NCBI GenBank assembly: GCA_021741155.1
Contig: JAIOYP010000004.1
Coordinates: forward strand, 62,001 to 126,000
Direction of reading: 5' to 3'
DNA from: Flavobacteriales bacterium
GTDB lineage: Bacteria > Bacteroidota > Bacteroidia > UBA10329
Length of the DNA: 64,000 bases
Shown: positions 1 through 24,420 of the stretch, piece by piece
Numbering within the stretch: position 1 is the stretch's first letter
Layout: each line of letters starts with the position of its first letter
The notes under the pieces: model-generated
Seen by the model: only the letters and a program-made list of their open reading frames with translations
Databases searched by the model: none
Told to the model about the DNA's origin: nothing
Translations under genes and position numbers: made by a program

Positions 1-1
1 G

Positions 2-2734
2 TCCGACAGAGCATATCCGCAGAACATAAAAACAATTCAAGGAAGCAATGGCATTGATGAAAAGATAAACCGTAACAGCAATATCATTGATATAATGATG
101 GAAACTGGAACAGGTAAAACCTACACATATACTAAAACCATATTTGAACTCAATAAGTACTACGGCATTTTTAAGTTCATTGTCGTAGTTCCAACTTTAT
201 CCATCAAAGCAGGTACCATTGATTTTTTGAAGTCAGACAGCAGTCGTGAGCACTTCAAGGAGCAGTATGGGAAAACGCTTCACTTGCACATTGTAGAAAG
301 TAAGAAGAACAATAAGAGCAAAAAATCTTTCATCCCGCCAGCAGTTACCAGTTTTGTGAATGCTGGGAACTTTGAGAAGAATAGTATTCAGGTATTGATA
401 ATCAATTCGGGGATGATCAACTCTGAAACGATGCAGAAGAGCTTTGATAAGGGACTGTTTGATACATACACTGTTCCTTTCGATGCCATTGGAGCAACGA
501 GACCATTTATGATTATTGACGAACCACACAAGTTCGGTACAGGGGGTAAGAGTTGGGAGAACATCCAGAAAATGAAGCCCCAGTTTATTCTCCGCTATGG
601 TGCAACATTTCAAGGATATGAAAACTTGGTGTACACGTTAACCGCAGTTGATTCGTTCAATAGAAACTTGGTAAAGGGTGTAATTGGGCACGTCACAGAG
701 TTTGAAAGTGGCAAGAACGCTGTGGTGAAATTTATTGATTCTGATGGCATAGAAGCCAGCTTTGAATTACTTGAGAATGGGAAACGAAAAACCGTTACCA
801 TATCAAAAAAGGAAAGTCTGAAAAAGATTCATTCCGAAATGACCGATCTGACGGTTGAAAATTTGAACAAGAGCACGGTTGTCTTGTCTAACGGTTTGGA
901 AATGAAGAAGGGCGATAAAATCAATCCTTACTCATATGCTGAGAAGTTGCAAGAAACCATGATTCAAAAAGCCATCAAGCACCATTTTGAAATTGAAAGG
1001 ACCTTGCTCACAAGGGATGTGAAAATAAAACCGCTTACTCTTTTCTTCATAGACAACATTGAGGAGTACCGAAACAAAGACGGGTATATCCGAAAAACTG
1101 TTGAGCAGTTCATTGAGTTGGAAATAAAGGAACTGCTGAAAACTGAGAAAGACACTTTCTATAGAGCATACCTTGAGGAGGCGTTGCTTGATCTCTCAAT
1201 TACACACGCAGGATATTTCTCAAAGGACAATACAGAGAAGGACGAAGCTATAGAGAAAGAGATAAACGAAATTTTGCACGATAAGCAAGCGATGCTTGAT
1301 TTGAAGAACCCAAGACGCTTCATCTTTTCTAAGTGGACTTTGCGTGAAGGATGGGATAATCCCAATGTATTTCAGATCTGTAAGCTCCGAAGTAGTGGGA
1401 GCGAAATTTCAAAGCTTCAGGAAGTTGGGCGTGGTTTACGTTTACCAGTGAATGAATATGGTAACCGTGTTAAAGACGAGCAGTTTTATCTCAACTACTT
1501 TGTGGACTTCACCGAGAGCGATTTTGTGGACACATTGGTAAACGAAATCAATGAGAAATCTGGAGCAATATCTGTGGAAGTAGTTCCCGACAAGCTTTCT
1601 GATGCGATGGTGAAGAAAATTTGCGAGGTCTATGGAATAGAAGAAGAGGAGCTCTTAGAAATACTGGATGCAAATAATGTAGTTACAAGGTCAAATTCGT
1701 TCAAAGCTGGTGGGTTTGACTTTATCAAGCAGAACTATCCGCGAATTTTTGAAGGTGTTGATTCTAGTAAGGTTCGCAAAGCAACAAGTGAGAAGAAGAA
1801 GGTTATTGTGAGAACGGAGAAGTATCAAGAGTTGAAAGACCTATGGGAAAAACTGAATGAGAAAGTAATTCTGGAGTATAAGTTTGAGAAAGAGGAAGAT
1901 TTCAAGATTTTGCTTACTAACTTTTTAATAGCACAAAAAGACAACTTTACTGCAGATGGAATCAACCAAAGAGTATCAAGAATTGAGATAAGAGACAACA
2001 AGGCAGTAGCCAATGAATTTGAGTCGGTGTACAATCGAAAGACGGCAGCGATTTCGATAATGAAGTATAGCGATTTCCTGAAAGATCTTTCAAAGATTCT
2101 GAATATCAATATCAAGACATTGAATCAATCCTTCCTCGATGCAGGGATTGAAATCAATAACTATCTAAACCAAACGACACTTCGTATTATCAAACAGAAC
2201 TTTGACTATTATCTAATGGCAAATGCCATTGATAAATTCAGTATTGAGTATAAAAGAGTTTCCAACAGCATTCATCCAACCAAGCTGACAGACGAGAAAG
2301 GAAATGTGCTCAAAGAGATTTCCGCCTCTGATGTAGGTGTTATGTTTTCTGATGAGGATGTTGCTACGAACTACTTTTTTGATGAATTGTATTATGACTC
2401 AGATTTAGAGAAAACGAATATCAAGACGAACATCGAAGAAGTAATCGTATTCACCAAAATTCCAAAGAACTCAATCAAGATTCCTGTTGCTGGTGGCAAA
2501 AGCTACTCACCTGACTTTGCGTATGTTCTGAAATTCAAAGATGGAGAGCAAAAGCTGAACTTCATTGTTGAGACCAAGGATGTAAATAGCGAAGACGCAC
2601 TGCGTGACGAGGAAAGATTCAAAATCAAACACGCTGAAAAGTTCTTTGATGGTAAGGTGAGAATTGAGTTTAGGTCACAGTTTAGCAATAATAAGATGGT
2701 TGACCTGATAAAATCAATTTCCGTTAATGACTAA
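2..2734 (+). CDS. res: Type III restriction enzyme, Res subunit (5' partial)
   Basis: The reading frame is open to the left edge of the window, so the N-terminus is missing. The visible part is a superfamily 2 helicase fused to a nuclease. It has Walker A METGTGKT near the start, the DEPH form of motif II typical of type III Res (about nt 518-529), and a motif VI-like GRGLRLP stretch near nt 1430. A C-terminal PD-(D/E)XK-like nuclease signature (SPDFAY, then IVETKD) lies around nt 2506-2580. Res translocates on or scans DNA and cleaves only when complexed with the Mod methyltransferase; the mod gene should lie upstream, outside the window. It converges on the Qat operon with an 86-bp gap, so the two systems form a defence cluster. 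No frameshift is seen in the visible part. Confidence 0.93.
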   Translation, partial: SDRAYPQNIKTIQGSNGIDEKINRNSNIIDIMMETGTGKTYTYTKTIFELNKYYGIFKFIVVVPTLSIKAGTIDFLKSDSSREHFKEQYGKTLHLHIVESKKNNKSKKSFIPPAVTSFVNAGNFEKNSIQVLIINSGMINSETMQKSFDKGLFDTYTVPFDAIGATRPFMIIDEPHKFGTGGKSWENIQKMKPQFILRYGATFQGYENLVYTLTAVDSFNRNLVKGVIGHVTEFESGKNAVVKFIDSDGIEASFELLENGKRKTVTISKKESLKKIHSEMTDLTVENLNKSTVVLSNGLEMKKGDKINPYSYAEKLQETMIQKAIKHHFEIERTLLTRDVKIKPLTLFFIDNIEEYRNKDGYIRKTVEQFIELEIKELLKTEKDTFYRAYLEEALLDLSITHAGYFSKDNTEKDEAIEKEINEILHDKQAMLDLKNPRRFIFSKWTLREGWDNPNVFQICKLRSSGSEISKLQEVGRGLRLPVNEYGNRVKDEQFYLNYFVDFTESDFVDTLVNEINEKSGAISVEVVPDKLSDAMVKKICEVYGIEEEELLEILDANNVVTRSNSFKAGGFDFIKQNYPRIFEGVDSSKVRKATSEKKKVIVRTEKYQELKDLWEKLNEKVILEYKFEKEEDFKILLTNFLIAQKDNFTADGINQRVSRIEIRDNKAVANEFESVYNRKTAAISIMKYSDFLKDLSKILNINIKTLNQSFLDAGIEINNYLNQTTLRIIKQNFDYYLMANAIDKFSIEYKRVSNSIHPTKLTDEKGNVLKEISASDVGVMFSDEDVATNYFFDELYYDSDLEKTNIKTNIEEVIVFTKIPKNSIKIPVAGGKSYSPDFAYVLKFKDGEQKLNFIVETKDVNSEDALRDEERFKIKHAEKFFDGKVRIEFRSQFSNNKMVDLIKSISVND

Positions 2735-2820: not shown

Positions 2821-3549
2821 TCATTTGATTCGCTGTAGTAACACATCAAAATTTTTCCTAATCTGATTTTCCATGCTTCTTACATCCAACTTGTGGATGT
2901 GAGACAGGAAATCAATAACGTACCTCACGTCACTTGGTACTGTCGCCTTATTCCTATGCATAGCATAAGGGGCATCGCTTTCAGTAAGAATCCGATCAAC
3001 GGGAATCTTTTCGATGATTCGCTTACCCTTCGGATTTGCAATCATAGACGGGTTAACAGAAAAGTAATATCCTGCTCGGATGATGTCGTCTAGTATCTCC
3101 AGTGAACCTGAGTACCAATGAAAAATCGCGTTGACAATTTTATACTCAGATAAAAGGTGCAACACTTCCCTCTCTGCTTTGCGAGAATGAATACTCAGTA
3201 TCTTTTTCCTAATCTGAACACATTCAAGCACGAATCGAAATGAATCAATTTGAATACTCTTGGTTTCAATCCCTTCCATTGAAAAATCCAGTCCCACTTC
3301 TCCTACGTAAGAAGTTCGGTCAATAAGTCGAGCAAACCGGGTTCTCTCCTGCAGATGTTCTTCTGCCATCAGCGGATGAAGGCCAAGTGCGAGCCTCGCA
3401 TATTTACACCTGCCAATATGAGGATGCCCCATTTCAAAATGGCTTGGCAGATTGGTCATGCCAATAACCACTATTTTTCTATCCTCAATCTCCTTTACAA
3501 TCGATAAAGGATTAGGGAACATATCAAAATGGCAGTGTACGTCAATCAT
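2821..3549 (-). CDS. qatD: QatD, TatD-like metal-dependent DNase of the Qat defence system
   Basis: This 242-residue protein has TatD-family metal-binding features: HCHFD at residues 4-8, GEVGLDFS near the middle, a SIHSRKAE segment, HWYSG, and TESDAP near the C-terminus. TatD enzymes are TIM-barrel nucleases using divalent metal. I start at the ATG directly before IDVHCHFD because metal motifs of this family sit at the very N-terminus; a longer frame adds nine residues. It overlaps the end of qatC by 8 bp, which suggests translational coupling. Family and position (last gene after a KAP ATPase, QatB-like and QueC-like genes) identify it as QatD rather than housekeeping TatD. Confidence 0.88.
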   Translation of the reverse strand: MIDVHCHFDMFPNPLSIVKEIEDRKIVVIGMTNLPSHFEMGHPHIGRCKYARLALGLHPLMAEEHLQERTRFARLIDRTSYVGEVGLDFSMEGIETKSIQIDSFRFVLECVQIRKKILSIHSRKAEREVLHLLSEYKIVNAIFHWYSGSLEILDDIIRAGYYFSVNPSMIANPKGKRIIEKIPVDRILTESDAPYAMHRNKATVPSDVRYVIDFLSHIHKLDVRSMENQIRKNFDVLLQRIK

Positions 3550-4894
3550 ATAATCCCGAAAGTTCCCCTTTAACAAATGAATTCCCCTTGTCGTTAATCC
3601 ACTTAGCCACTTCTTCTCTTGAGCGTATTACCAGGGCTGCGAATTCATCCAACGTTGGAAGATTAGCACCATTCACCAATAAATCTCGCTTAATGGTTTC
3701 ATGGGTAAGTCTCCTTTTCAGATAACTGAACAGGGCTGGCATATCGACATATTTCTTCAAGGAATCAGCATTAAGAATATCGTTTCCATATAGTTGGGTA
3801 TCCCTTCCAATGGCGTGTAGCGCGGATCTACGGTATATGCATGGCATGCATACCCCGCAATGGGAAGTCCCTTCTCGTATATCCCAATTTTGCTTTCTAC
3901 CTCTTTTTCCACATGACACAGATTGTTCATATATGCCATTTAGAACATTTCTATTAGTGCAATTCACTATCATCTCACCTTTTGTTGAGTTGAAGTAGGG
4001 ATTACTCAAGGTCACATCAATACCGAGATCAGGCAACAGAGATTGGATTTTTTGGAATACATATGGGTGAGTAGTCCGTGTACTTAACGTGCTTATTCGT
4101 GAGGGAGTAAGAGGATAATTTATTGATATAGGTCCATTCTCTGGGATAATTAGGCTATTCGTTACACTTACATACACACCCAAGCTAATGAACAAGAGTG
4201 ACCTGCTACGAAAACTTGATTCTCTTGGAAATACTTGCCTGTTGTTATCACGTTTTGACAAAGTAATAGGAGCTTGAAGCCAGTACACCTTTCCAGAATA
4301 ACTAGTACTCAGAAAATCCTGTAGCCTTGTTTGATCTGCATTCGGTCCTGGAGAGCCAGAATCAAAGTGTGACATAAGCACGATTTTCTCTTGGCCGTCA
4401 AGTTTCTCCAACTCATCAATAATCCCAATGAGAGAGTCCAGCCCTCCAGAAAAAAGACTCGTTTCCTTTATCAATGGTTTATCATAAGTGGGTCTCCTGC
4501 GTTGTCGAATATCCACGTAATAGCTTTCTATTTCGCTTTGAGAAAATGAAACAGACCATGAATCTCCCGTGAGAAAATCCAGCACTTGTTTAAGTGAAGA
4601 TTCACGACCAGTCCAAATCCCCAGATTGCAAACGGGAAAGGATACTTCTATTTCTCGCGACCAGCCGTCAACTGAATACTTTTCCCTGTCCAACAGATTA
4701 TCTATGCCATACACTATAGACGAGATAAGAAAAAAATCGAATCGAACAGAAGATGTATCCTGTACAAAATTGCCTAGGTGCTTGAAGTTGATCTTGAGTT
4801 CAACCACCCGGTTTATCCCGTGCTTGTCCACAAAGCTCATCTCAACTTTGGAAAATCCATACACCGCTTCTGTCAATCCTATTTCTACTTTCAT
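3542..4894 (-). CDS. qatC: QatC, QueC-like PP-loop protein of the Qat defence system
   Basis: A 450-residue protein related to QueC (7-cyano-7-deazaguanine synthase). The PP-loop ATP-pyrophosphatase motif SGGLDS is present at about residues 150-155, and a C-terminal zinc-type cysteine cluster is visible (HCGVCMPC), preceded by another Cys upstream (SCGK). It is about twice the length of housekeeping QueC, with an extra N-terminal region of roughly 140 residues, which is usual for the defence version. The ATG start lies one base after the qatB stop; a TTG nine bases upstream would overlap qatB. In Qat systems its exact chemistry is not established; nucleotide or peptide modification is inference. 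Confidence 0.9.
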   Translation of the reverse strand: MKVEIGLTEAVYGFSKVEMSFVDKHGINRVVELKINFKHLGNFVQDTSSVRFDFFLISSIVYGIDNLLDREKYSVDGWSREIEVSFPVCNLGIWTGRESSLKQVLDFLTGDSWSVSFSQSEIESYYVDIRQRRRPTYDKPLIKETSLFSGGLDSLIGIIDELEKLDGQEKIVLMSHFDSGSPGPNADQTRLQDFLSTSYSGKVYWLQAPITLSKRDNNRQVFPRESSFRSRSLLFISLGVYVSVTNSLIIPENGPISINYPLTPSRISTLSTRTTHPYVFQKIQSLLPDLGIDVTLSNPYFNSTKGEMIVNCTNRNVLNGIYEQSVSCGKRGRKQNWDIREGTSHCGVCMPCIYRRSALHAIGRDTQLYGNDILNADSLKKYVDMPALFSYLKRRLTHETIKRDLLVNGANLPTLDEFAALVIRSREEVAKWINDKGNSFVKGELSGLYD

Positions 4895-4895
4895 G

Positions 4896-5642
4896 TTATT
4901 CAAATACAGTTAATACATCTTGGTAAACGTTCTTTATTACCCGATCACCTTCCTCAGAACTCCAATCGATTTCATGCAGTGGGTTCCTTTTCTGCATATC
5001 CACAAGTCGTTCTACAATGAATTCCCTAATCTGCCTGAACAGGCCTTGACAATCGCCCTCATTCTTACTACTTACGAGATGTTCGTATAGCAATATGGAG
5101 AGGTGCTCGTATATATAATACCCGAAGTACTTTATTATTAAATCTTCCGAAGTGTTGAATGAAAAAGATTGTTCTAATAGTACTTCAATCTCTTCAATTG
5201 ACGAAGCATTGGAAACAAGTTCTTCCAGTAATCTTCTTGATGCTTCCTTGGCAGCACGGTCGTCAATCGTAGAAGTTTCTCCAGAACAGTATTGGATAAG
5301 ATGGTCAATGACATCAGAGACCGTCTTTCCAGTCAAATCCGTTAGACCAGTTTCCGCAAGAGCTTGACGTATGTTATTTCCTCCACCACTGAACGCACTG
5401 AAAAAAGTACCAAGACGTTTGGCAGTATTAATTCCACTTCTTCCTACCACTTTCGATGATCCACGCCCAGCAGTTGAGGATCCACCGATAGCTTCAACAT
5501 AGTGTCGAGTTATATTTGATAATCTTTCGGGGGTAAGGGTAGTGCCATCACAACTTCTTGTTACCGCATTACTTAACGCAGGCCAGTTTGGCATTACACC
5601 AGATTTCCCTTTAACGTTGGAAAGTGATTTAGATGTACCCAT
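4896..5642 (-). CDS. qatB: QatB, Qat defence protein of unknown activity
   Basis: A 248-residue protein with no catalytic motif that I recognise. The N-terminus is Ser/Gly/Thr-rich (TSKSLSNVKGKSGVMPNWPAL, then a Gly-rich GGSSTAGRGSSK segment), followed by a mostly helical acidic region. No signal peptide or membrane segment is visible. It lies 2 bp after qatA and 1 bp before qatC, so it is clearly co-transcribed. The assignment rests mainly on gene order and size in the four-gene Qat arrangement. The glycine-rich N-terminus resembling a flexible tail could be a substrate or partner-binding region, but that is speculation. Confidence 0.82.
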   Translation of the reverse strand: MGTSKSLSNVKGKSGVMPNWPALSNAVTRSCDGTTLTPERLSNITRHYVEAIGGSSTAGRGSSKVVGRSGINTAKRLGTFFSAFSGGGNNIRQALAETGLTDLTGKTVSDVIDHLIQYCSGETSTIDDRAAKEASRRLLEELVSNASSIEEIEVLLEQSFSFNTSEDLIIKYFGYYIYEHLSILLYEHLVSSKNEGDCQGLFRQIREFIVERLVDMQKRNPLHEIDWSSEEGDRVIKNVYQDVLTVFE

Positions 5643-5644
5643 AT

Positions 5645-7522
5645 TTATTTCGTTGAATTATTCAGATTAAACGCCTTACCCGTTTTACTACCATCCCCTT
5701 TAAAATACTCCGTCAAAAACCCTCCCACCTCAGGATGGTCCTTAAGTCTATTCAAGACAAGACCTATGGCTGGTGAAATTGTGGACTTGGCCACTTTCTG
5801 CAATACTTCTGTATAACTAGCGGCAGCCCCAGACACACTTTTGTTAATCATTGTGATAAACACCTTATGAAGGTTATCTTTATCTGGGTTTCTAAAGAAC
5901 ATTTTCTGAAAGTACTCTAGAAAGGCGTCCCTGTCAATCGAAGTTAGTGGTAGCACTTCGGATTCAATAATTTTATCAACTACTCCCTGCGAGACATCTT
6001 GATTTAATTTGTTCGCGAGCGTCTTTATCATTGGAGACACCAGACTCGAACCAGAAATAGATGCGGTGACTCGATCACGAGAAATCCAAAAATAATCGCT
6101 GAGGTCGATGTCGGAAAACGAAGGTGCCAACGCCAACCAAGTTACAATCTTGGGCTTTGCCCAGTCCTTATATTTTTCTCCAAATCGTCCCATTGCCTCT
6201 TCAAGGGAGACATCTTTACAGAAATCCTCCAACTCTCCAATTTCAGCGGGGTGGCCCTTCTGAATCAACTGCCAATCGAACAGATTCTTAAATAATCGTA
6301 ATTCGGTGTATTCCAAGATCATGAGCTTAGCTAATACCGCATCGTTAAACTCACTCATGGAAGCAACACCCGCCAGTCTTTTCCTTAATGTGTAGGTGTT
6401 TAGGAAACGTTTTATCTGACGAGGATTTCCATAGAGGCTTTGGGCAATAAGTGGCGCAAGAGACGGTATGGTGATGATGTTTTGTTTGACCTGTTCATGT
6501 TCAGCAGGCTCTAGAATCGATTGAAAATTGCTCAATCCGAATGCGCTATACCTATCCTTTATCCTATAAGCATGAAATTCATTCAGGACAGAAGAAAATG
6601 ACACTGGGCTAACTGCGCTTTTACAAATCAGCATTGACATATATGTCTCCACTTCCGGTTCAGATAGCTTGGGAAGATAATATGGAATCTGAATGAGCTT
6701 TTCAAGATAATCATCGACTATCCGTGTATTCTCGTTATCAACACGATTATCGGTTTTATAACGATACTCAATCGCGTGGCGGACAACTCTAGGGTCAGCC
6801 CCAATAACAAACGCTGTTTTCTCGACATTCAAAAAAAGCTTGATGGCTTCCAGATTCTCTATAATTCTATCTGGCGCACACCTATCTAGGTCATCGATAA
6901 TTATGACTAAACGCTTAATAGACGACTTATCTAGCAAACTTTTGAATTCATTTCTGAATTCTCGCACAAGAGTTGATACGTCATCCTCTTCTTTTTTTAT
7001 AATGGACTTCAGAAACTCTTCGGAATCACTTCCTTGAACCTTTTCTAGAAATTTATCGGCTCCCATTTTCTGAGCCATGTCACCAAGCAGTGACAATCCT
7101 CCCGTTGCATAAGCAGATGCGACAGGTAAAGCAATATTCTTAAACCCAAGACCCAAAAGGCGCATCCATTGCACGGACTTGAGCAATTTAGTGGTTTCGT
7201 CTTTCACTTTGTGACCAAGTGTTTTATGGTCATCAAACGCCTTTACAATAGATTCTAGGATCGCGGCTTTCGCATCATCATACCCTTCAAACACCCAACC
7301 ATTAAAGTACAAAACCAACGTATCATCCTTCAGTATATCTGGATTATCAGATACCAATTCGTCATGCACGATTTTGAGGATACTAGATTTCCCACTTCCC
7401 CAATCTCCAAACACTCCAATTGTTGTAGGGAGGACAGCTTCATCTTTGATTACGTTAAGAATCAAATCAGCGTGTACCCGAAATCCTAGCAAATCTTCTG
7501 TTGTCTCGTTATCTGACCACAT
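5645..7522 (-). CDS. qatA: QatA, KAP-family P-loop NTPase of the Qat defence system
   Basis: A 625-residue KAP-type NTPase. Walker A GDWGSGKSS lies at about residues 39-47 and Walker B VIIIDDLDRCAPDR at about 206-219, both close to the KAP consensus. A hydrophobic stretch (LGLGFKNIALPVASAYATGG) at about 120-140 sits between the two, where KAP proteins often carry membrane or helical insertions. KAP ATPases are commonly the sensing or motor part of anti-phage systems. It is the first gene of the operon; a TAnnTTTG box lies about 47 bp upstream of the ATG and a terminator separates it from the preceding operon. Confidence 0.9.
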   Translation of the reverse strand: MWSDNETTEDLLGFRVHADLILNVIKDEAVLPTTIGVFGDWGSGKSSILKIVHDELVSDNPDILKDDTLVLYFNGWVFEGYDDAKAAILESIVKAFDDHKTLGHKVKDETTKLLKSVQWMRLLGLGFKNIALPVASAYATGGLSLLGDMAQKMGADKFLEKVQGSDSEEFLKSIIKKEEDDVSTLVREFRNEFKSLLDKSSIKRLVIIIDDLDRCAPDRIIENLEAIKLFLNVEKTAFVIGADPRVVRHAIEYRYKTDNRVDNENTRIVDDYLEKLIQIPYYLPKLSEPEVETYMSMLICKSAVSPVSFSSVLNEFHAYRIKDRYSAFGLSNFQSILEPAEHEQVKQNIITIPSLAPLIAQSLYGNPRQIKRFLNTYTLRKRLAGVASMSEFNDAVLAKLMILEYTELRLFKNLFDWQLIQKGHPAEIGELEDFCKDVSLEEAMGRFGEKYKDWAKPKIVTWLALAPSFSDIDLSDYFWISRDRVTASISGSSLVSPMIKTLANKLNQDVSQGVVDKIIESEVLPLTSIDRDAFLEYFQKMFFRNPDKDNLHKVFITMINKSVSGAAASYTEVLQKVAKSTISPAIGLVLNRLKDHPEVGGFLTEYFKGDGSKTGKAFNLNNSTK

Positions 7523-9552: not shown

Positions 9553-10485
9553 TCAGGCCGTAAATCGATATGGGCTGTCAATCCTGTGCAATTTTTTCCC
9601 TGCGGTCGTTTCCATTGGCAAGAACTTCTTGAGCAGTTCCCCTTGTTCTTGTAAGTTCAGTCGAACATAAATCTCGCTGGACGTGATGTTTGAATGACCT
9701 GCTATGCTCTGAATCTGATGCCGGTTCCCTCCCGCATTCAATATTTCATGGCACTTACCATGACGAAAAGCGTGAGGCCGAATCGGAAAACCAAGGAAGT
9801 TCTGGAGTTCCTTACACCAGCGTTGGACGCTCCGTTGTTGGAGTGGCGTTCGCTCACCTGCATTTCGACTGCTTGGTGCGGTTTGGAACAGACTTGCCCC
9901 TTTATTCATGCAGATGCGAATACCGATGTACTTCATAAGTAATCGGTGGCATTCATCATTCCACATGACCATGCGGAGTTTCTTCGTTTTGAGCGTAGTG
10001 ATGTACGTGTAGTTACGGTCGGTCTGTATGTCCGCGATTTTCAGTGAGAGGAGTTCAGATATTCTCATACCTGTATTCCATAGGAGCTGAAACACCACCT
10101 TCCTTGTCAGTTGGTTGAAGTCGTCTTCATCAAGCGTGTCGTCTATGAGTTCAAACTGCTGTCGGCTGATGAAGTCTGGGAATGTTTCGGTGATGCGCGG
10201 GCCTTGTATAAGTTCCCACGAGATGGTGCTTTCATCTTTTGCCGACCAATGTTTGAAGAACGCCCTGATGGCATTGGCATGCAGTGACCGTGTTCGTTCC
10301 TGATAGATTCCCTTCAGGTACGCGAGGTAGTCGTCCAAGATGTCGTCATTGACGGTGCTCAGTTCGGGGTTGTTCAGCCACTTGCAGAACAGCTTCAGTA
10401 CGCTTTCATAGGTACTTACGGTTCTTGCCGACAGTCGGCTTGAACGGCTTTTGATATATAATTCTATTGACTTTTCAAATTTCAT
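9553..10485 (-). CDS. Tyrosine recombinase, XerC/D-like size
   Basis: A 310-residue site-specific recombinase. The N-terminal SAM-like core-binding domain spans about residues 1-95, and the catalytic domain follows. Catalytic signatures are visible: first Arg in WNTGMRISELLSL, HAFRHG for His-x-x-Arg, and GHSNITSSEIYVR with the second His and the nucleophilic Tyr. The ATG at 10485 is preferred over a GTG two codons upstream. It is distinct from the larger integrase near 24 kb; it may resolve multimers of the mobile element or belong to a second nested element. The 3' end carries a short hairpin, and a GC-rich hairpin lies just upstream of the start. Confidence 0.88.
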   Translation of the reverse strand: MKFEKSIELYIKSRSSRLSARTVSTYESVLKLFCKWLNNPELSTVNDDILDDYLAYLKGIYQERTRSLHANAIRAFFKHWSAKDESTISWELIQGPRITETFPDFISRQQFELIDDTLDEDDFNQLTRKVVFQLLWNTGMRISELLSLKIADIQTDRNYTYITTLKTKKLRMVMWNDECHRLLMKYIGIRICMNKGASLFQTAPSSRNAGERTPLQQRSVQRWCKELQNFLGFPIRPHAFRHGKCHEILNAGGNRHQIQSIAGHSNITSSEIYVRLNLQEQGELLKKFLPMETTAGKKLHRIDSPYRFTA

Positions 10486-10492
10486 AGGCACA

Positions 10493-13302: not shown

Positions 13303-14163
13303 TCAATTCCTGTCAAAGTCGTCCCTATTCCTTGAAGAGTGTTCACTACTCATTCGCATATTATCAAGTTCTGAAAGACGTGTGTGTTGCAGGTCAAGTT
13401 CCGTCACTTGCTCTGGTTTCAATCCTAACCGTGAAAACCGCATCTTCTTCCCTTGTTCACTCCAAAGAATCCCTTGGACTCTGCCCCTGTGGTTATAGGT
13501 TGCGAAGCCTTGTTCTCGCAGATTCAGATAGAACTGCTCTGAGTTTTCCGATATGCGGAAAATGCCTTGGATACGTTCACTGAGTTCTTCGCGTGTGAGC
13601 TTCAGCTCAGGATTCCGCTTTTGCTTGTAGTAGGCTTTCTCACTGAATTCCTTTTTCCCCCAAGCTTGTTCATCGATACCAATAGTAAGCGAAGGATGAT
13701 GTTCCCGCATGTACCGGAGCATTTCCATATGAACGCTCCTAAGGTTTTCCTTGGAGAGCCGAGTTGATTCTTTACTCATCAGTTCATTGGCACTGACTAT
13801 AAGATGAGAATGCCAATGCTGTTCTGATTTGTGATGGGTTCCGAACGCAAGGGCATTTGGGTAGGTTTTTTGGATGTATGTGTTTACAAGGTCATCCATG
13901 ATCTCCACGCTCATCTTTTCACGGTCGAGCGGGTTGACCGAAAGAATCACATGCACCGCCTTATTTCCGTTCCTGCGTTTCTTGGCGAAGTCGGCATAGT
14001 TGGTCTGGAATTCAAGGGTTATACCATCAAGGTCAGTGCGGTTGAGATTATGAAAAATACCCTGCGTATGATGGTCTTCAATGTGGCCCTTGTCAGTTGC
14101 GATGTACGCAACAACGTTAGCCACCGCGTTATACGTCTTGACGGGGAGAATCTTGATAATCAT
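13303..14163 (-). CDS. Relaxase / mobilization nuclease (MobP/MobB type)
   Basis: A 286-residue DNA-nicking relaxase. The N-terminus carries YNAVANVVAYIATDKG, followed by a nuclease core with VHVILSVNP and the histidine cluster EQHWHSHLIVSANE (about residues 115-130). That cluster corresponds to the metal-binding HxH motif of relaxases. It would nick one strand at oriT and lead it into a recipient. It is the last gene of the mobilization operon, overlapping the preceding MobC-like gene by 35 bp. At under 300 residues it is short, but the C-terminus is a normal variable charged tail. The oriT is probably nearby but was not identified. Confidence 0.85.
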   Translation of the reverse strand: MIIKILPVKTYNAVANVVAYIATDKGHIEDHHTQGIFHNLNRTDLDGITLEFQTNYADFAKKRRNGNKAVHVILSVNPLDREKMSVEIMDDLVNTYIQKTYPNALAFGTHHKSEQHWHSHLIVSANELMSKESTRLSKENLRSVHMEMLRYMREHHPSLTIGIDEQAWGKKEFSEKAYYKQKRNPELKLTREELSERIQGIFRISENSEQFYLNLREQGFATYNHRGRVQGILWSEQGKKMRFSRLGLKPEQVTELDLQHTRLSELDNMRMSSEHSSRNRDDFDRN

Positions 14164-14617
14164 AGAGCCATTCGATTATAAGAGGCGAATCAGTGGGGCG
14201 TTCTCTGAGATGTTCCCTGAGTAGGTCGATAATGTTAGGCGGGCGGGTGATGGTATTGCGGACTTCCCTTTCTAGTGTTTGTAGCAGGAACTGAAACTGC
14301 TTGACTTCCTCCAGCGTGATACCCTTTTCGTAGTGGGCATATCGGGTGAGCTGGTTGGCGTTGTTACCAATTCTCCGCAAGGCGAGTGAAAGTTCTTGAA
14401 GGCGGTTATCTGACGGCAGGACATAACCCGTGCCGTGTATTTCAGCGGAGATGAGGGCTTTGAGATAATCAGAAACCTTCAGTCCCTTTTTCTTTGCATG
14501 GCGTTCTAATTCCTTTGCTTCGGGTTTGGGTAGGCTTAGGGTATAGGTGCAATTCCGTTCTCGGAACCGTTTTTTCCTGAGCGTTGCTTTTTCTCTATGT
14601 CCTACATCTTTAGACAT
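14129..14617 (-). CDS. MobC-like relaxosome accessory protein
   Basis: A 162-residue protein with a basic N-terminus and a ribbon-helix-helix-like segment (LPKPEAKELERHAKKKGLKV). It then has the MobC signature LRRIGNNANQLTRYAH in the second half. MobC proteins bind oriT and assist strand separation for the relaxase. I choose the ATG before SKDVGHREK because it overlaps the coupling-protein stop by 8 bp; an upstream start would give 12 further hydrophobic residues inside that gene. It overlaps the relaxase by 35 bp, indicating coupled translation. Confidence 0.85.
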   Translation of the reverse strand: MSKDVGHREKATLRKKRFRERNCTYTLSLPKPEAKELERHAKKKGLKVSDYLKALISAEIHGTGYVLPSDNRLQELSLALRRIGNNANQLTRYAHYEKGITLEEVKQFQFLLQTLEREVRNTITRPPNIIDLLREHLRERPTDSPLIIEWLYDYQDSPRQDV

Positions 14618-16055
14618 ACTGCTTTTTGTCCTGAACCAATGCGTCAACATCAATGAGAGGAAGTTCCCTTGCTGACTGGCTTGTAATATGTGGCGGTGGC
14701 ATTTCGCTCATGGTTCGGAGCGACCTATCCTTGAAGTAGGGTCTGACATTCACTTTCATGGGGCGGTAGGAACCTGCTGCGAGTATGGCGGTACCTTCAT
14801 CCATGTGTACCAGTTCGGACACGGTCATCACTTCACGCGAACCTTGTCCTTTTCCGTCCTCCCTTTCAAACGTCCATCGACCAAGACGTTTTTCAAGCTC
14901 TTGGGCCAAATCAGTTTCCATGCCGGGGAAAATGAGTTTGCTCCAAGAGTTAGCGAGAATCGTATGTGCGTCATGACTGCCATAGCGTTCGATGAGCTGA
15001 GCACGAGACTGTATGGCGTACATGATTCCAACACGGTACTTTCTGAGATTGCTAAGTGCCTCTGCGAACCCTTTGATTGTGAGTGACCCTAGCTCGTCAG
15101 CAAGAATCAACACATCGAGTTTATTCTTCTCTGGGATAATGCGCATGAGTTCACGGAAAAGTTGCGTGAAGAAAATTTCAATCAGGAAAGAGTAATACGA
15201 GGCGTCCATAACGTCCGTCCAGATGTATATCGCAGTTTTGGAATCCCTGAAAGATTGTAGGTCGAGAGTATCGGACCCCGTGCATTTCGCAACAGCTTCA
15301 TCTCCGAAAATGCGGACACCACTTTCAGCAGTTGCAAGTACATTGGAAAGCAACTTCCCTTCTTGACTGATGGTCGCTTTGTATTCAGTGAACAGCTGGT
15401 CGTCTGCATAAGCTGAGTACAATTGATCGACCTTCTTTGGGTCAGCTTGCATGAGACTGATGAGATACCTCGTATTGGCCAGCGTTTGGTATTGAGTAGG
15501 AAGGGTCTTTTGAAGCTTGAAGATGGTGACGAGTAGTTTGGCTCCCATTTGAGGCCAGAAGATGTCGCGACTGTTTCTAAACTGTGGGTCAAGAATCATT
15601 TCAGCGAGCATGTTGAGCTCTGTGCTGGTTGAAGCCCGCTGCAAGGGGTTGAACCCAAGAGAGATTGACGGGTCTTTAAAATCAAGCACTTTGATCGTGT
15701 AGCCTTTGCGATGTAGTTCGCCTGAGGTCTTTCGGAAAAGTTCTTTGGCCGGATCCAAAAACACTAAAGAGCAATCATCCATTCCTAGTGCAGTTGGAAT
15801 CAAAGCACCTGTGGTTTTTCCTCCACCGCTTTGACCGATAAGTACCGCGTGTTTGAATGAATGGTCACGGGTTATCTTGCCGTCTCCTAAACAAAATCCT
15901 TTGTTCCATCTTGAAAGTAGCGAAGAAGGATTCCCGAAGTCATCATCATACGTCTGCTTACGCTGCTCTTTGAAGAACTGGACCACAATCGCAATCAGAA
16001 GGAACAATGCGATGAGATGCCAGAGCTTTGGTGTGAAGATGTAGAGGTATTCCAT
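14610..16055 (-). CDS. VirD4/TraG-type coupling protein
   Basis: A 481-residue type IV coupling ATPase. An N-terminal membrane segment (LWHLIALFLLIAIVVQFF, about residues 11-28) is followed by Walker A LIGQSGGGKTTG (about 72-83) and Walker B VLILADELGSL (about 308-318). Coupling proteins deliver the relaxase-DNA complex to a type IV secretion channel. No channel genes are visible, so the element would need one from elsewhere or from outside the window. It lies 7 bp after a 51-residue membrane protein and overlaps the MobC-like gene. Confidence 0.9.
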   Translation of the reverse strand: MEYLYIFTPKLWHLIALFLLIAIVVQFFKEQRKQTYDDDFGNPSSLLSRWNKGFCLGDGKITRDHSFKHAVLIGQSGGGKTTGALIPTALGMDDCSLVFLDPAKELFRKTSGELHRKGYTIKVLDFKDPSISLGFNPLQRASTSTELNMLAEMILDPQFRNSRDIFWPQMGAKLLVTIFKLQKTLPTQYQTLANTRYLISLMQADPKKVDQLYSAYADDQLFTEYKATISQEGKLLSNVLATAESGVRIFGDEAVAKCTGSDTLDLQSFRDSKTAIYIWTDVMDASYYSFLIEIFFTQLFRELMRIIPEKNKLDVLILADELGSLTIKGFAEALSNLRKYRVGIMYAIQSRAQLIERYGSHDAHTILANSWSKLIFPGMETDLAQELEKRLGRWTFEREDGKGQGSREVMTVSELVHMDEGTAILAAGSYRPMKVNVRPYFKDRSLRTMSEMPPPHITSQSARELPLIDVDALVQDKKQYV

Positions 16056-22968: not shown

Positions 22969-24183
22969 TTAATTCCCTCCTATGACCTTCTCCAGTGCTT
23001 CATCGGTATCCTTGAAGATGAAGTTCGATTGGTAGTTCACCGTGGTGGTGATGTTGGAGTGTCGATACAGTTTTTGAAGCATTTGTACGGGAATCTTGTC
23101 TCCTGAGATATTGCCGAAGGTGTGTCGAGCGATGTGCATACTGACCTTCTTTTCAATTCCAATCTCTGGAGTGATTTTCTTGAGTTGCTTGTTGAGTCTA
23201 CTCACCGCCTCGGAGGTTTTCTTTTGAACCATGTACTTGTCGTTGAGGTCCTTTACCACTTCAAGTTCCGGAAAAACCAGATTGTGTATACGCTTCCTCT
23301 CAATGTACTTGTCGAGTATCCTTTGGGCTTTGGGGGATACTTTGAACGAACCTGATTTGTCATTCTTCCCCATTGTGTAGTACAGCCTTCCATCTTGAAA
23401 GTCTGACCACTTAAGGCGAAGGACATCAGATACGCGCATCCCAGCGAAATAGAAAGAGATGAGCCAGATGTTACGTGCATGATCTTGGATGGGAGAAAGG
23501 GCAGCTTCTTCGAGTATGGTCACTTCATCCGGTGAAAGGCCAATTTTCACGGAATCAGGGAACTTGATTTGAATCCCGTGTTTTCCGAAGGGATAGTGTT
23601 CAGCGGTGACGAATCCCGCTTGAATAGCCTGATTGAAGATGGTGCGTATGATGATGAGGTGATTGATGATCGTTCGGTCTTTAATGTTCCGAGTGCGTTT
23701 GAGGTACGCGCTAAATCTCCGAAGGAGCGGGATGGTGATGTCTTGAAAGGCGATGTCAGCCCCATCCAAGAACTCTCTGAAATGATTGATGCGAGGTTTC
23801 TCTGCAACGTACCTGTTGAAGCTCCCTAAGTCTCGGAGGTTTTTGAGGTAGTCTTCCTCTGCGTAGCGGAAGAAGGATGAACCCTTCCCTGTTCCTTCAA
23901 CGGTTTCTTTGATTGCTTTGGCAGTTGTTCGCTTACGCTTCGTTTGGTCGTCAATGGCTTGCCCGCTTAACTCCGCTACTTTGTGAGCGATGAGGTTATT
24001 GAGCCGTGCTGCGTTCGAGTGCTTCTTTACCTGACAGGTGACTTCATCCCACTGATCGAGGCGAAGTTGGTATCCGAGATGGATGAATGAGCTTTTCCTA
24101 TCTTTGGTAATGCGGATGGCAAGGGGGTAGGTGCCATCCTTTTTACTCTCCTTCTTTCTGAGTACTGCTTTAACTGATGCCAT
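22969..24183 (-). CDS. int: Tyrosine integrase of the island
   Basis: A 404-residue phage-type integrase of the Bacteroidota class. An N-terminal arm-binding domain (MASVKAVLRKKESKKDGTYP, then IRITKDRKSSFIHLGYQ) is followed by a SAM-like core-binding domain and a catalytic domain. The catalytic domain shows FAGMRVSDVLRL (first Arg), HIARHTFG (His-x-x-Arg) and YRHSNITTTVNYQ (second His and nucleophilic Tyr). I start at the ATG before ASVKAVLR; the upstream extension of 30 residues is out of character. The gene lies about 140 bp from the tRNA-derived attachment site, as in most site-specific integrative elements. It should integrate the island into a tRNA gene with CAT anticodon. Confidence 0.92.
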   Translation of the reverse strand: MASVKAVLRKKESKKDGTYPLAIRITKDRKSSFIHLGYQLRLDQWDEVTCQVKKHSNAARLNNLIAHKVAELSGQAIDDQTKRKRTTAKAIKETVEGTGKGSSFFRYAEEDYLKNLRDLGSFNRYVAEKPRINHFREFLDGADIAFQDITIPLLRRFSAYLKRTRNIKDRTIINHLIIIRTIFNQAIQAGFVTAEHYPFGKHGIQIKFPDSVKIGLSPDEVTILEEAALSPIQDHARNIWLISFYFAGMRVSDVLRLKWSDFQDGRLYYTMGKNDKSGSFKVSPKAQRILDKYIERKRIHNLVFPELEVVKDLNDKYMVQKKTSEAVSRLNKQLKKITPEIGIEKKVSMHIARHTFGNISGDKIPVQMLQKLYRHSNITTTVNYQSNFIFKDTDEALEKVIGGN

Positions 24184-24321
24184 GATGCGGATCGTTTGGG
24201 TACAACATAGGTACAACATTTTCCGATTTGGTACAACATCATCTGGCCTTATTTTTTCACAATCTCCCTTCACACTGGGATTATTGAATCACATGGATCC
24301 ATATGATATCAATAAATTAGG

Positions 24322-24364
24322 ATTCATAACCCTGAGGTCGGGGGTTCAATTCCCCCTCTCGCTA
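24322..24364 (+). other. Attachment site: 3' half of a tRNA gene (CAT anticodon)
   Basis: The sequence folds as the 3' half of a tRNA. It has an anticodon loop with CAT at 24325-24327, the stem's 3' strand CCCTG, the variable loop AGGTC, a perfect T arm GGGGG-TTCAATT-CCCCC, acceptor strand TCTCGCT and discriminator A. The 5' half (D arm, 5' acceptor AGCGAGA) is absent from the left flank. Thus this is the displaced 3' end left after integration, and an intact copy is expected beyond the left edge of the window. CAT can mean Met, fMet or the Ile2 tRNA; I cannot tell which. Confidence 0.75.
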
Positions 24365-24420
24365 CAAAAGCTCTTTGTCTGAGTCATTTCGTTCAATTCC
24401 AAACGAATTTACAAACTATC

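What the first reader, a model, noticed from the sequence alone, without database searches (positions are those of the whole stretch)
2821..7522. Complete Qat defence operon beside a type III restriction subunit, inside a mobile island
The four genes (KAP ATPase, QatB-like, QueC-like with PP-loop, TatD-like DNase) have tight spacing (2 bp, 1 bp, 8-bp overlap) and intact catalytic motifs. The Qat arrangement is established as anti-phage; its occurrence in this kind of tRNA-associated mobilizable island next to type III restriction may indicate a co-travelling defence pair.
Basis: partly seen in the sequence, partly recalled or inferred. Interest (0 to 1): 0.55.

Follow-up and report, generated by a model that had tools for sequence, protein, structure and literature searches.

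The report
Ordinary Qat defence operon in island
A bacterium of the phylum Bacteroidota carries a complete, known type of anti-virus gene set (Qat) on a piece of mobile DNA next to a second, also known, defence; it is an ordinary member of its kind.

Summary
Minus strand 7522-2821 carries qatA-qatB-qatC-qatD with the stated spacing (2 bp, 1 bp, 8-bp overlap) and intact motifs. All four proteins match QatA-D profiles; QatB is the weakest but begins MGTS, the N-terminal motif shown elsewhere to be essential (PMC13279940), found in 79 of 79 QatB frames of named relatives. The neighbour is one half of a complete type III R-M system; its mod gene lies just outside the window. The island is real: a 47-bp direct repeat of the tRNA-Met 3' part bounds about 27.4 kb with integrase, relaxase, MobC-like and coupling proteins.

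The 'co-travelling pair' reading is not supported: type III homologues lie near Qat in 3 of 80 named relatives (2 with both mod and res), in other arrangements, and in 0 of 12 phylum loci.

[quoted passage not shown] The modifying group is unknown. Three of 57 Qat-bearing genomes show no QueC, QueD or QueE, which argues against host-made CDG as the sole co-substrate. Known kind; low interest.

The parts
5645..7522 (-). qatA, KAP-family P-loop NTPase, 625 aa, Walker A GDWGSGKS
   Evidence: PADLOC QatA 3.8e-100; Pfam KAP_NTPase 5.7e-46; NCBIfam QatA 398 bits, under its 600-bit cut-off; motifs
4896..5642 (-). qatB, 248 aa, N-terminus MGTSKSLSNVKGKSGVMPNW (MGTS motif, conserved P and W)
   Evidence: PADLOC QatB 2.5e-8; NCBIfam QatB 9.6e-15, 55 bits, under its 100-bit cut-off; alignment A2, identity up to 60% to relatives, M1 G2 T3 P18 W20 invariant in 18 sequences; A2 profile finds the solved QatB chains
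3542..4894 (-). qatC, QueC-family protein, 450 aa, SGGLDS, STRTTHP, Cys4
   Evidence: NCBIfam QatC 315 bits, over cut-off; PADLOC 1.6e-89; single-sequence match to the solved QatC 9vlk_A 4.2e-47; alignment A1
2821..3549 (-). qatD, TatD-family nuclease, 242 aa
   Evidence: NCBIfam QatD 231 bits, over its 230 cut-off; PADLOC 8.2e-62; Pfam TatD_DNase 7.2e-44
1..2734 (+). 3' part of the type III restriction subunit res (957 aa in all, starts at C16:61861, before the window)
   Evidence: NCBIfam PRK15483 986 bits; PADLOC REase_III; full frame and upstream mod (EcoP15I-type C-terminal domain) at L003:14775-16859
9553..10491 (-). tyrosine recombinase (XerD/XerA-like) inside the island
   Evidence: Pfam Phage_integrase 5.3e-27
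13303..14163 (-). MobA/VirD2-like relaxase
   Evidence: Pfam Relaxase 1.3e-7
14129..14653 (-). NikA/MobC-like accessory mobilization protein
   Evidence: Pfam NikA-like 1.3e-7, MobC 8.7e-6
14610..16055 (-). VirD4/TraG-type coupling protein
   Evidence: Pfam T4SS-DNA_transf 1.5e-53
22969..24273 (-). island integrase (tyrosine recombinase with arm-binding domain)
   Evidence: Pfam Phage_integrase 2.7e-16, Arm-DNA-bind_5 7.7e-16
24319..24365 (.). right attachment repeat: 47 bp identical to the 3' part of tRNA-Met at C16:58928-58974 (left end, outside the window)
   Evidence: exact repeat; tRNA by ARAGORN

Best explanation
This is a complete Qat (qatABCD) anti-phage operon carried by a roughly 27.4-kb tRNA-Met-integrated mobilizable island that also brings a full type III R-M system. 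Shown here: the four genes, order, motifs, N-terminal MGTS of QatB, the island ends. Inferred from published work on P. aeruginosa and E. coli Qat: QatB and QatC form a complex; the initiator Met is removed and QatC, using ATP at its SGGxDS loop, joins a small group to the exposed Gly2 of QatB; the modified QatB blocks phage growth by an unknown route; QatA (DNA-binding oligomeric NTPase) and QatD (TatD nuclease) widen or tune the range of phages. The two defences sit together because the island collects defence genes, not because they work as one system.
For: Profiles; match of single QatC to solved QatC chains and of QatC and QatB alignment profiles to solved QatC and QatB chains; catalytic motifs; MGT[ST] N-terminus in 79 of 79 QatB frames of 80 named loci (74 at the first start, 5 at an inner Met); SGGxDS in 80 of 80 and Cys4 in 79 of 80 QatC loci; ST.T.HP in 74 of 81 QatC pieces; order A-B-C-D in 77 of 80; att repeats and mobility genes; no DNA-level copy in the 8 congeners among 59 genomes searched. 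Mechanism from PMC13279940, parts 1-3 of 6 read.
Against: QatA and QatB score under NCBI's curated equivalog cut-offs. No activity against phage was or could be tested. In print, QatC's reaction has not been reconstituted in vitro (PMC13279940). The host assembly shows no QueC or QueE, so the CDG version of the mechanism may not apply, although 8 of 8 congeners do have a QueE-like match.
Confidence: 0.9

Rival explanations
1. The Qat operon and the type III R-M form a co-travelling, functionally linked defence pair: type III cuts unmodified phage DNA and Qat catches phages that escape.
For: They lie 86 bp apart in one island. In L113 mod-res run into qatA with 2- and 11-bp gaps; in L123 mod and res flank qat.
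Against: 3 of 80 named loci (2 with both mod and res) and 0 of 12 phylum loci have a type III homologue in the flank held. Arrangements differ (convergent, tandem, split) and Mod/Res identities are 30-36%. Of the 14 close relatives whose frames I listed (L044-L055, L063, L071) none has type III.
Confidence: 0.07
2. The operon is a decayed or inactive passenger of the island.
For: Some relatives are broken: L084 qatA is in two frames; L103 qatA and qatC are split; of 12 phylum loci L029 has no QatA match and no MGT start, L031 no QatD match, L032 a split qatA.
Against: All four window frames are open, full length, with tight spacing and intact motifs.
Confidence: 0.06
3. QatC here acts as a nucleobase (preQ0) synthase replacing the missing QueC of the host.
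For: Host has TGT but no QueC match.
Against: Operon context is defence; the QueC substrate residues Tyr/Asp are replaced by the STRT threonines (with PMC13279940); E. coli QatC did not restore queuosine in a queC mutant (PMC13329287, passages). Two congeners without Qat, G442 and G446, also have only weak partial QueC-family matches, so lack of a canonical QueC looks like a trait of the genus.
Confidence: 0.02

Closest known systems
Qat (qatABCD) of Escherichia coli and Pseudomonas aeruginosa (Gao et al. 2020, recalled; PMC13279940; PDB 9zee/9zef, 9vlk/9vll)
   Same: Four genes in the same order, KAP NTPase, MGTS-headed QatB, QueC-family QatC with SGGxDS, STRT and Cys4, TatD nuclease
   Different: Sequence is distant (QatA and QatB under NCBI equivalog cut-offs); QatB is shorter (248 aa against 282-287 aa for the solved chains), with little between P18/W20 and the folded part
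Qat of Flavobacteriia, e.g. L044 Flavobacterium sp. UBA6135, L045 Kaistella yonginensis, L051 Tenacibaculum larymnensis (Qat already reported there, PMC10013915 passages)
   Same: QatC 49-55% identical, QatB of 245-249 aa starting MGTSKS
   Different: Other neighbours; no type III R-M in the flanks held
Type IV CBASS Cap9 / CD-NTase deazaguanylation (PMC11996544, search listing only; described in PMC13279940)
   Same: QueC-family enzyme with a partner protein that exposes an N-terminal glycine
   Different: QatC has N- and C-terminal extensions and threonines in place of Cap9's Tyr/Asp base-binding residues; QatB is no CD-NTase (PMC13279940)

Membership tests
Qat (qatABCD) | QatA KAP NTPase as first gene | tested here: met
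   PADLOC 3.8e-100, Pfam KAP 5.7e-46; NCBIfam 398 bits, under the strict 600 cut-off
Qat (qatABCD) | QatB with N-terminal MGTS and a P/W-bearing tail | tested here: met
   MGTSKSLSNVKGKSGVMPNW; PADLOC 2.5e-8, NCBIfam 55 bits, under the 100 cut-off; A2 profile to solved QatB 1.8e-29 and 1.5e-28. Disorder of the tail not computed
Qat (qatABCD) | QatC of QueC family with SGGxDS, invariant Thr pair, Zn Cys4, extra N- and C-terminal regions | tested here: met
   315 bits over cut-off; motifs; match to 9vlk_A over residues 49-392
Qat (qatABCD) | QatD TatD-family nuclease as last gene | tested here: met
   231 bits, cut-off 230; HCH, GEVGLD, HSR, SDAP (TatD motif names recalled)
Qat (qatABCD) | Operon order A-B-C-D, tightly spaced | tested here: met
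   gaps 2 bp, 1 bp, overlap 8 bp; same order in 77 of 80 named loci
Qat (qatABCD) | Protects against phage; depends on QatC catalysis and QatB Gly2 | not testable with these tools
   needs plaque assays
Type III R-M | Adjacent mod (N6/N4 methylase, EcoP15I-type C-terminal domain) and res (helicase plus endonuclease) | tested here: met
   mod L003:14775-16859 with PF01555 and PF18273; res 957 aa, PRK15483 986 bits on the part in the window
Integrative mobilizable element at a tRNA | Integrase, relaxase, direct repeats one of which completes a tRNA | tested here: met
   excision or transfer not testable
Deazaguanylation with host-made CDG as co-substrate | Host makes CDG (QueD and QueE) | tested here: inconclusive
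   Host G000: two PTPS-family matches, no QueE by three models, but 8 of 8 congeners have a QueE-like match; 3 of 57 Qat-bearing genomes show no QueC, QueD or QueE

The most novel reading that the evidence does not exclude
QatC does not put host-made 7-carboxy-7-deazaguanine on QatB: its co-substrate is another carboxylate common to most bacteria (or something the phage brings). Qat with intact QatB MGTS and intact QatC SGGxDS and STRT occurs in Planococcus sp. 107-1 (complete chromosome; its qatA is frameshifted), Paenibacillus anaericanus and Leptolinea tardivitalis, genomes in which no QueC, QueD or QueE was found, while related Qat-bearing Bacillota show all three side by side.
Probability: 0.4. 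Interest if true: 0.6.

Novelty: new member of a known kind. Interest (0 to 1): 0.22.

Why it matters
In itself it adds one more Qat locus, with a well-delimited mobile carrier, to a known family. The useful by-product is a natural experiment: Qat in genomes without a detectable 7-deazaguanine pathway makes the open question of what QatC attaches to QatB directly testable, because the co-substrate in those hosts cannot be home-made CDG if the absence is real.

Tried and rejected
Co-travelling pair with type III: searched for in 12 phylum loci and 80 named loci; rejected as a general rule. L098 and L117 gave weak Mod matches (2e-10, 1e-9) to a 626-627 aa methylase-like protein 12-14 bp before qatA; not counted as type III.

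Host as a clean CDG-less case: G000 has no QueC and no QueE by three models, but 8 of 8 congeners have a QueE-like match and the assembly is 94.7% complete, so I dropped it as proof. Two Prevotella (G424, G429) lack PTPS even at E 0.1 but have a QueC over cut-off, and the control Bacteroides ihuae also shows QueC without a PTPS match, so a replaced QueD is possible there; dropped from the strong set. G408 has QueC and QueD matches but no QueE by the three models, so these models do not cover every QueE; the claim for the three remaining genomes rests on QueD/PTPS and QueC as much as on QueE. Only 57 Qat genomes were examined: 13 G handles (G000 and 12 phylum genomes over the QatC cut-off) and 44 of the 80 named loci, chosen as isolates or well-covered genomes; 36 named loci, mostly metagenome bins, were left out. 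TIGR04322 was run on 9, PF01242 on 11 and PF06508 on 32 genomes only.

Homology of the MGHKR partner proteins (see noticed) to QatB by profile comparison: no support (hhalign probability 0.7%).

Phage records: the window's QatC has only two weak matches (25% identity) in 50,697 phage records; 118 of 72,556 plasmid records have a match at E 1e-5, 56 of them on plasmids typed conjugative or mobilizable.

Literature searches for prior statements on type III beside Qat and on QatC with QueE; no paper linking Qat to type III or surveying CDG genes in Qat hosts was seen in these listings. Only open-licence papers are held.
Full report
What is there. The finding's coordinates are right. On the minus strand four genes follow one another: 7522-5645 (625 aa), 5642-4896 (248 aa), 4894-3542 (450 aa) and 3549-2821 (242 aa). 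PADLOC names them QatA (3.8e-100), QatB (2.5e-8), QatC (1.6e-89) and QatD (8.2e-62). NCBIfam agrees; QatC and QatD pass the curated cut-offs (315 against 280, 231 against 230 bits), QatA and QatB do not (398 against 600, 55 against 100). The ATP-binding, zinc and metal motifs are intact.

QatB, the weak point. It has one, and better evidence exists. Its N-terminus is MGTSKSLSNVKGKSGVMPNW. PMC13279940 (parts 1-3 of 6 read) reports a conserved MGTS start in QatB, loss of defence with G2D, and loss with deletion of the stretch that holds a conserved Pro and Trp. Among 80 named loci I found 79 QatB frames; all 79 hold MGTS or MGTT, 74 at the first start codon and 5 at an inner Met. In an alignment of 18 QatB sequences M1, G2, T3, P18 and W20 are the only invariant columns. 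A profile of that alignment finds the two solved QatB chains (1.8e-29, 1.5e-28).

QatC. A search with the window's QatC alone finds the two solved QatC sequences (4.2e-47 and 4.4e-42). The threonine pair that replaces the QueC Tyr/Asp base-binding residues in PMC13279940 corresponds, by my reading of the alignments, to STRT at 271-274. SGGxDS is present in 80 of 80 and the Cys4 pattern in 79 of 80 named loci; ST.T.HP in 74 of 81 QatC frame pieces.

Surroundings. The type III res gene is convergent, its stop 86 bp from that of qatD. It starts at C16:61861, before the window, 1 bp after a mod gene (L003:14775-16859) with methylase and EcoP15I-type C-terminal domains. So the R-M system is complete, not a lone subunit. 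A tRNA-Met lies at L003:13900-13974; its last 47 bases, 13928-13974, recur exactly at window 24319-24365, just beyond an integrase. Between them lie about 27.4 kb with a second recombinase, a relaxase, a MobC-like protein and a coupling protein. This supports 'tRNA-associated mobilizable island'. Eight congeners among 59 genomes searched have no DNA match to the operon, as expected for a recent gain.

Do Qat and type III travel together? In the phylum survey 19 of 395 genomes have a QatC match at E 1e-15, 13 of 395 over the cut-off. Of the 12 loci over the cut-off besides the window's, none has a match to the window's Mod or Res within the stretch taken. Nine of these 12 have all four genes, L029 lacks a QatA match and the MGT start, L031 lacks a QatD match, L032 has a split qatA. 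Of the 80 named loci, 77 have all four gene types in order; L071, L089 and L121 do not, the first two at contig ends. Type III homologues occur in L113 (mod, res, then qatA, gaps 2 and 11 bp), L123 (mod, another gene, qat, res) and L056 (a Res-like frame at the contig edge): 3 of 80, over about 1.13 Mb of flank. That may exceed the genome average, which I did not measure, but the arrangements and sequences differ, so these look like separate meetings in defence islands.

Co-substrate question. CBASS Cap9 joins CDG to a protein; QatC's reaction is unresolved in print (PMC13279940). CDG needs QueD and QueE (PMC13329287, passages). I examined 57 Qat-bearing genomes: 13 G handles and 44 of the 80 named loci. 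QueD: 52 of 57. QueC: 26 of 57 at E 1e-5, 19 of 57 over cut-off. TGT: 57 of 57. QueE: 51 of 57 with TIGR03365 and 50 of 57 with TIGR04508, most under cut-off (3 and 1 of 57 over it). Three genomes show none of QueC, QueD, QueE: G422 (L084 Planococcus sp. 107-1, complete chromosome), G433 (L107 Paenibacillus anaericanus) and G434 (L108 Leptolinea tardivitalis); PTPS is absent in them even at E 0.1 and the E. coli-type QueE model finds nothing. With PF06508, G422 has no match and G433 and G434 only partial, generic PP-loop matches. Their QatB starts MGTS and their QatC keeps SGGLDS and STRT. The Bacillota G425, G430 and G431 show QueC, QueD and QueE side by side, so the search works in that phylum. 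Against this: most Qat hosts do have QueD and a QueE-like match; L084's qatA is in two frames; salvage is conceivable; and the window's own host is no clean case, since 8 of 8 congeners have a QueE-like match.

Verdict. An ordinary, complete Qat operon in a clear mobile island with a complete type III R-M. The pair idea is not supported. The co-substrate observation is the only part of wider interest, and it comes from relatives, not from this window.

Noticed in passing
L038:1797-4315+; L039:8914-11420-; L040:6465-9007-; L041:8565-11083+; L042:8512-11237+; L138:5001-7645: A two-gene unit without QatA or QatD: a 252-260 aa protein that starts MGH[KE]R (6 of 6 loci) followed by a long QatC-like protein (575-656 aa) with SGGxDS and CGxCxxC. 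In the loci scanned (L039, L041, L042) the partner has no Pfam or NCBIfam match and at most a weak PADLOC one, and no profile similarity to QatB. Neighbours include methylase-like, helicase and type I R-M-like genes (read from sequence) and an IS982 on a Leptospira noguchii plasmid. It may be a separate QueC-family system with its own N-terminal-glycine partner.
   Followed up: partly
L037:8622-11137+: Another variant: a 188-aa protein starting MGTSVSQ, a 452-aa QatC-like protein under the QatC cut-off, and a 211-aa protein with no match.
   Followed up: partly
L123:2310-13163: A whole qatABCD operon lies between the mod and res genes of a type III system in a Kiritimatiellaeota bin.
   Followed up: no
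L113:2527-12066: mod, res and qatABCD run in one direction with gaps of 2 and 11 bp before res and qatA in a Muribaculaceae genome, as if one operon.
   Followed up: no
L098:5508-7391 and L117:5241-7121: A 626-627 aa methylase-like protein ends 12-14 bp before qatA in Prevotella pallens and Segatella buccae.
   Followed up: no
G000 and other genomes of its class: Many genomes of this class have TGT, QueD and a QueE-like match but no canonical QueC match (TIGR00364 at E 1e-5), so their preQ0 step or the use of their CDG is unclear. All genomes looked at carry Qat, so this is no general survey.
   Followed up: no
window 24199-24219 and L003:14013-14033: The 21-bp sequence GGTACAACATAGGTACAACAT occurs near both island ends, a likely integrase arm-binding site (function inferred).
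   Followed up: no
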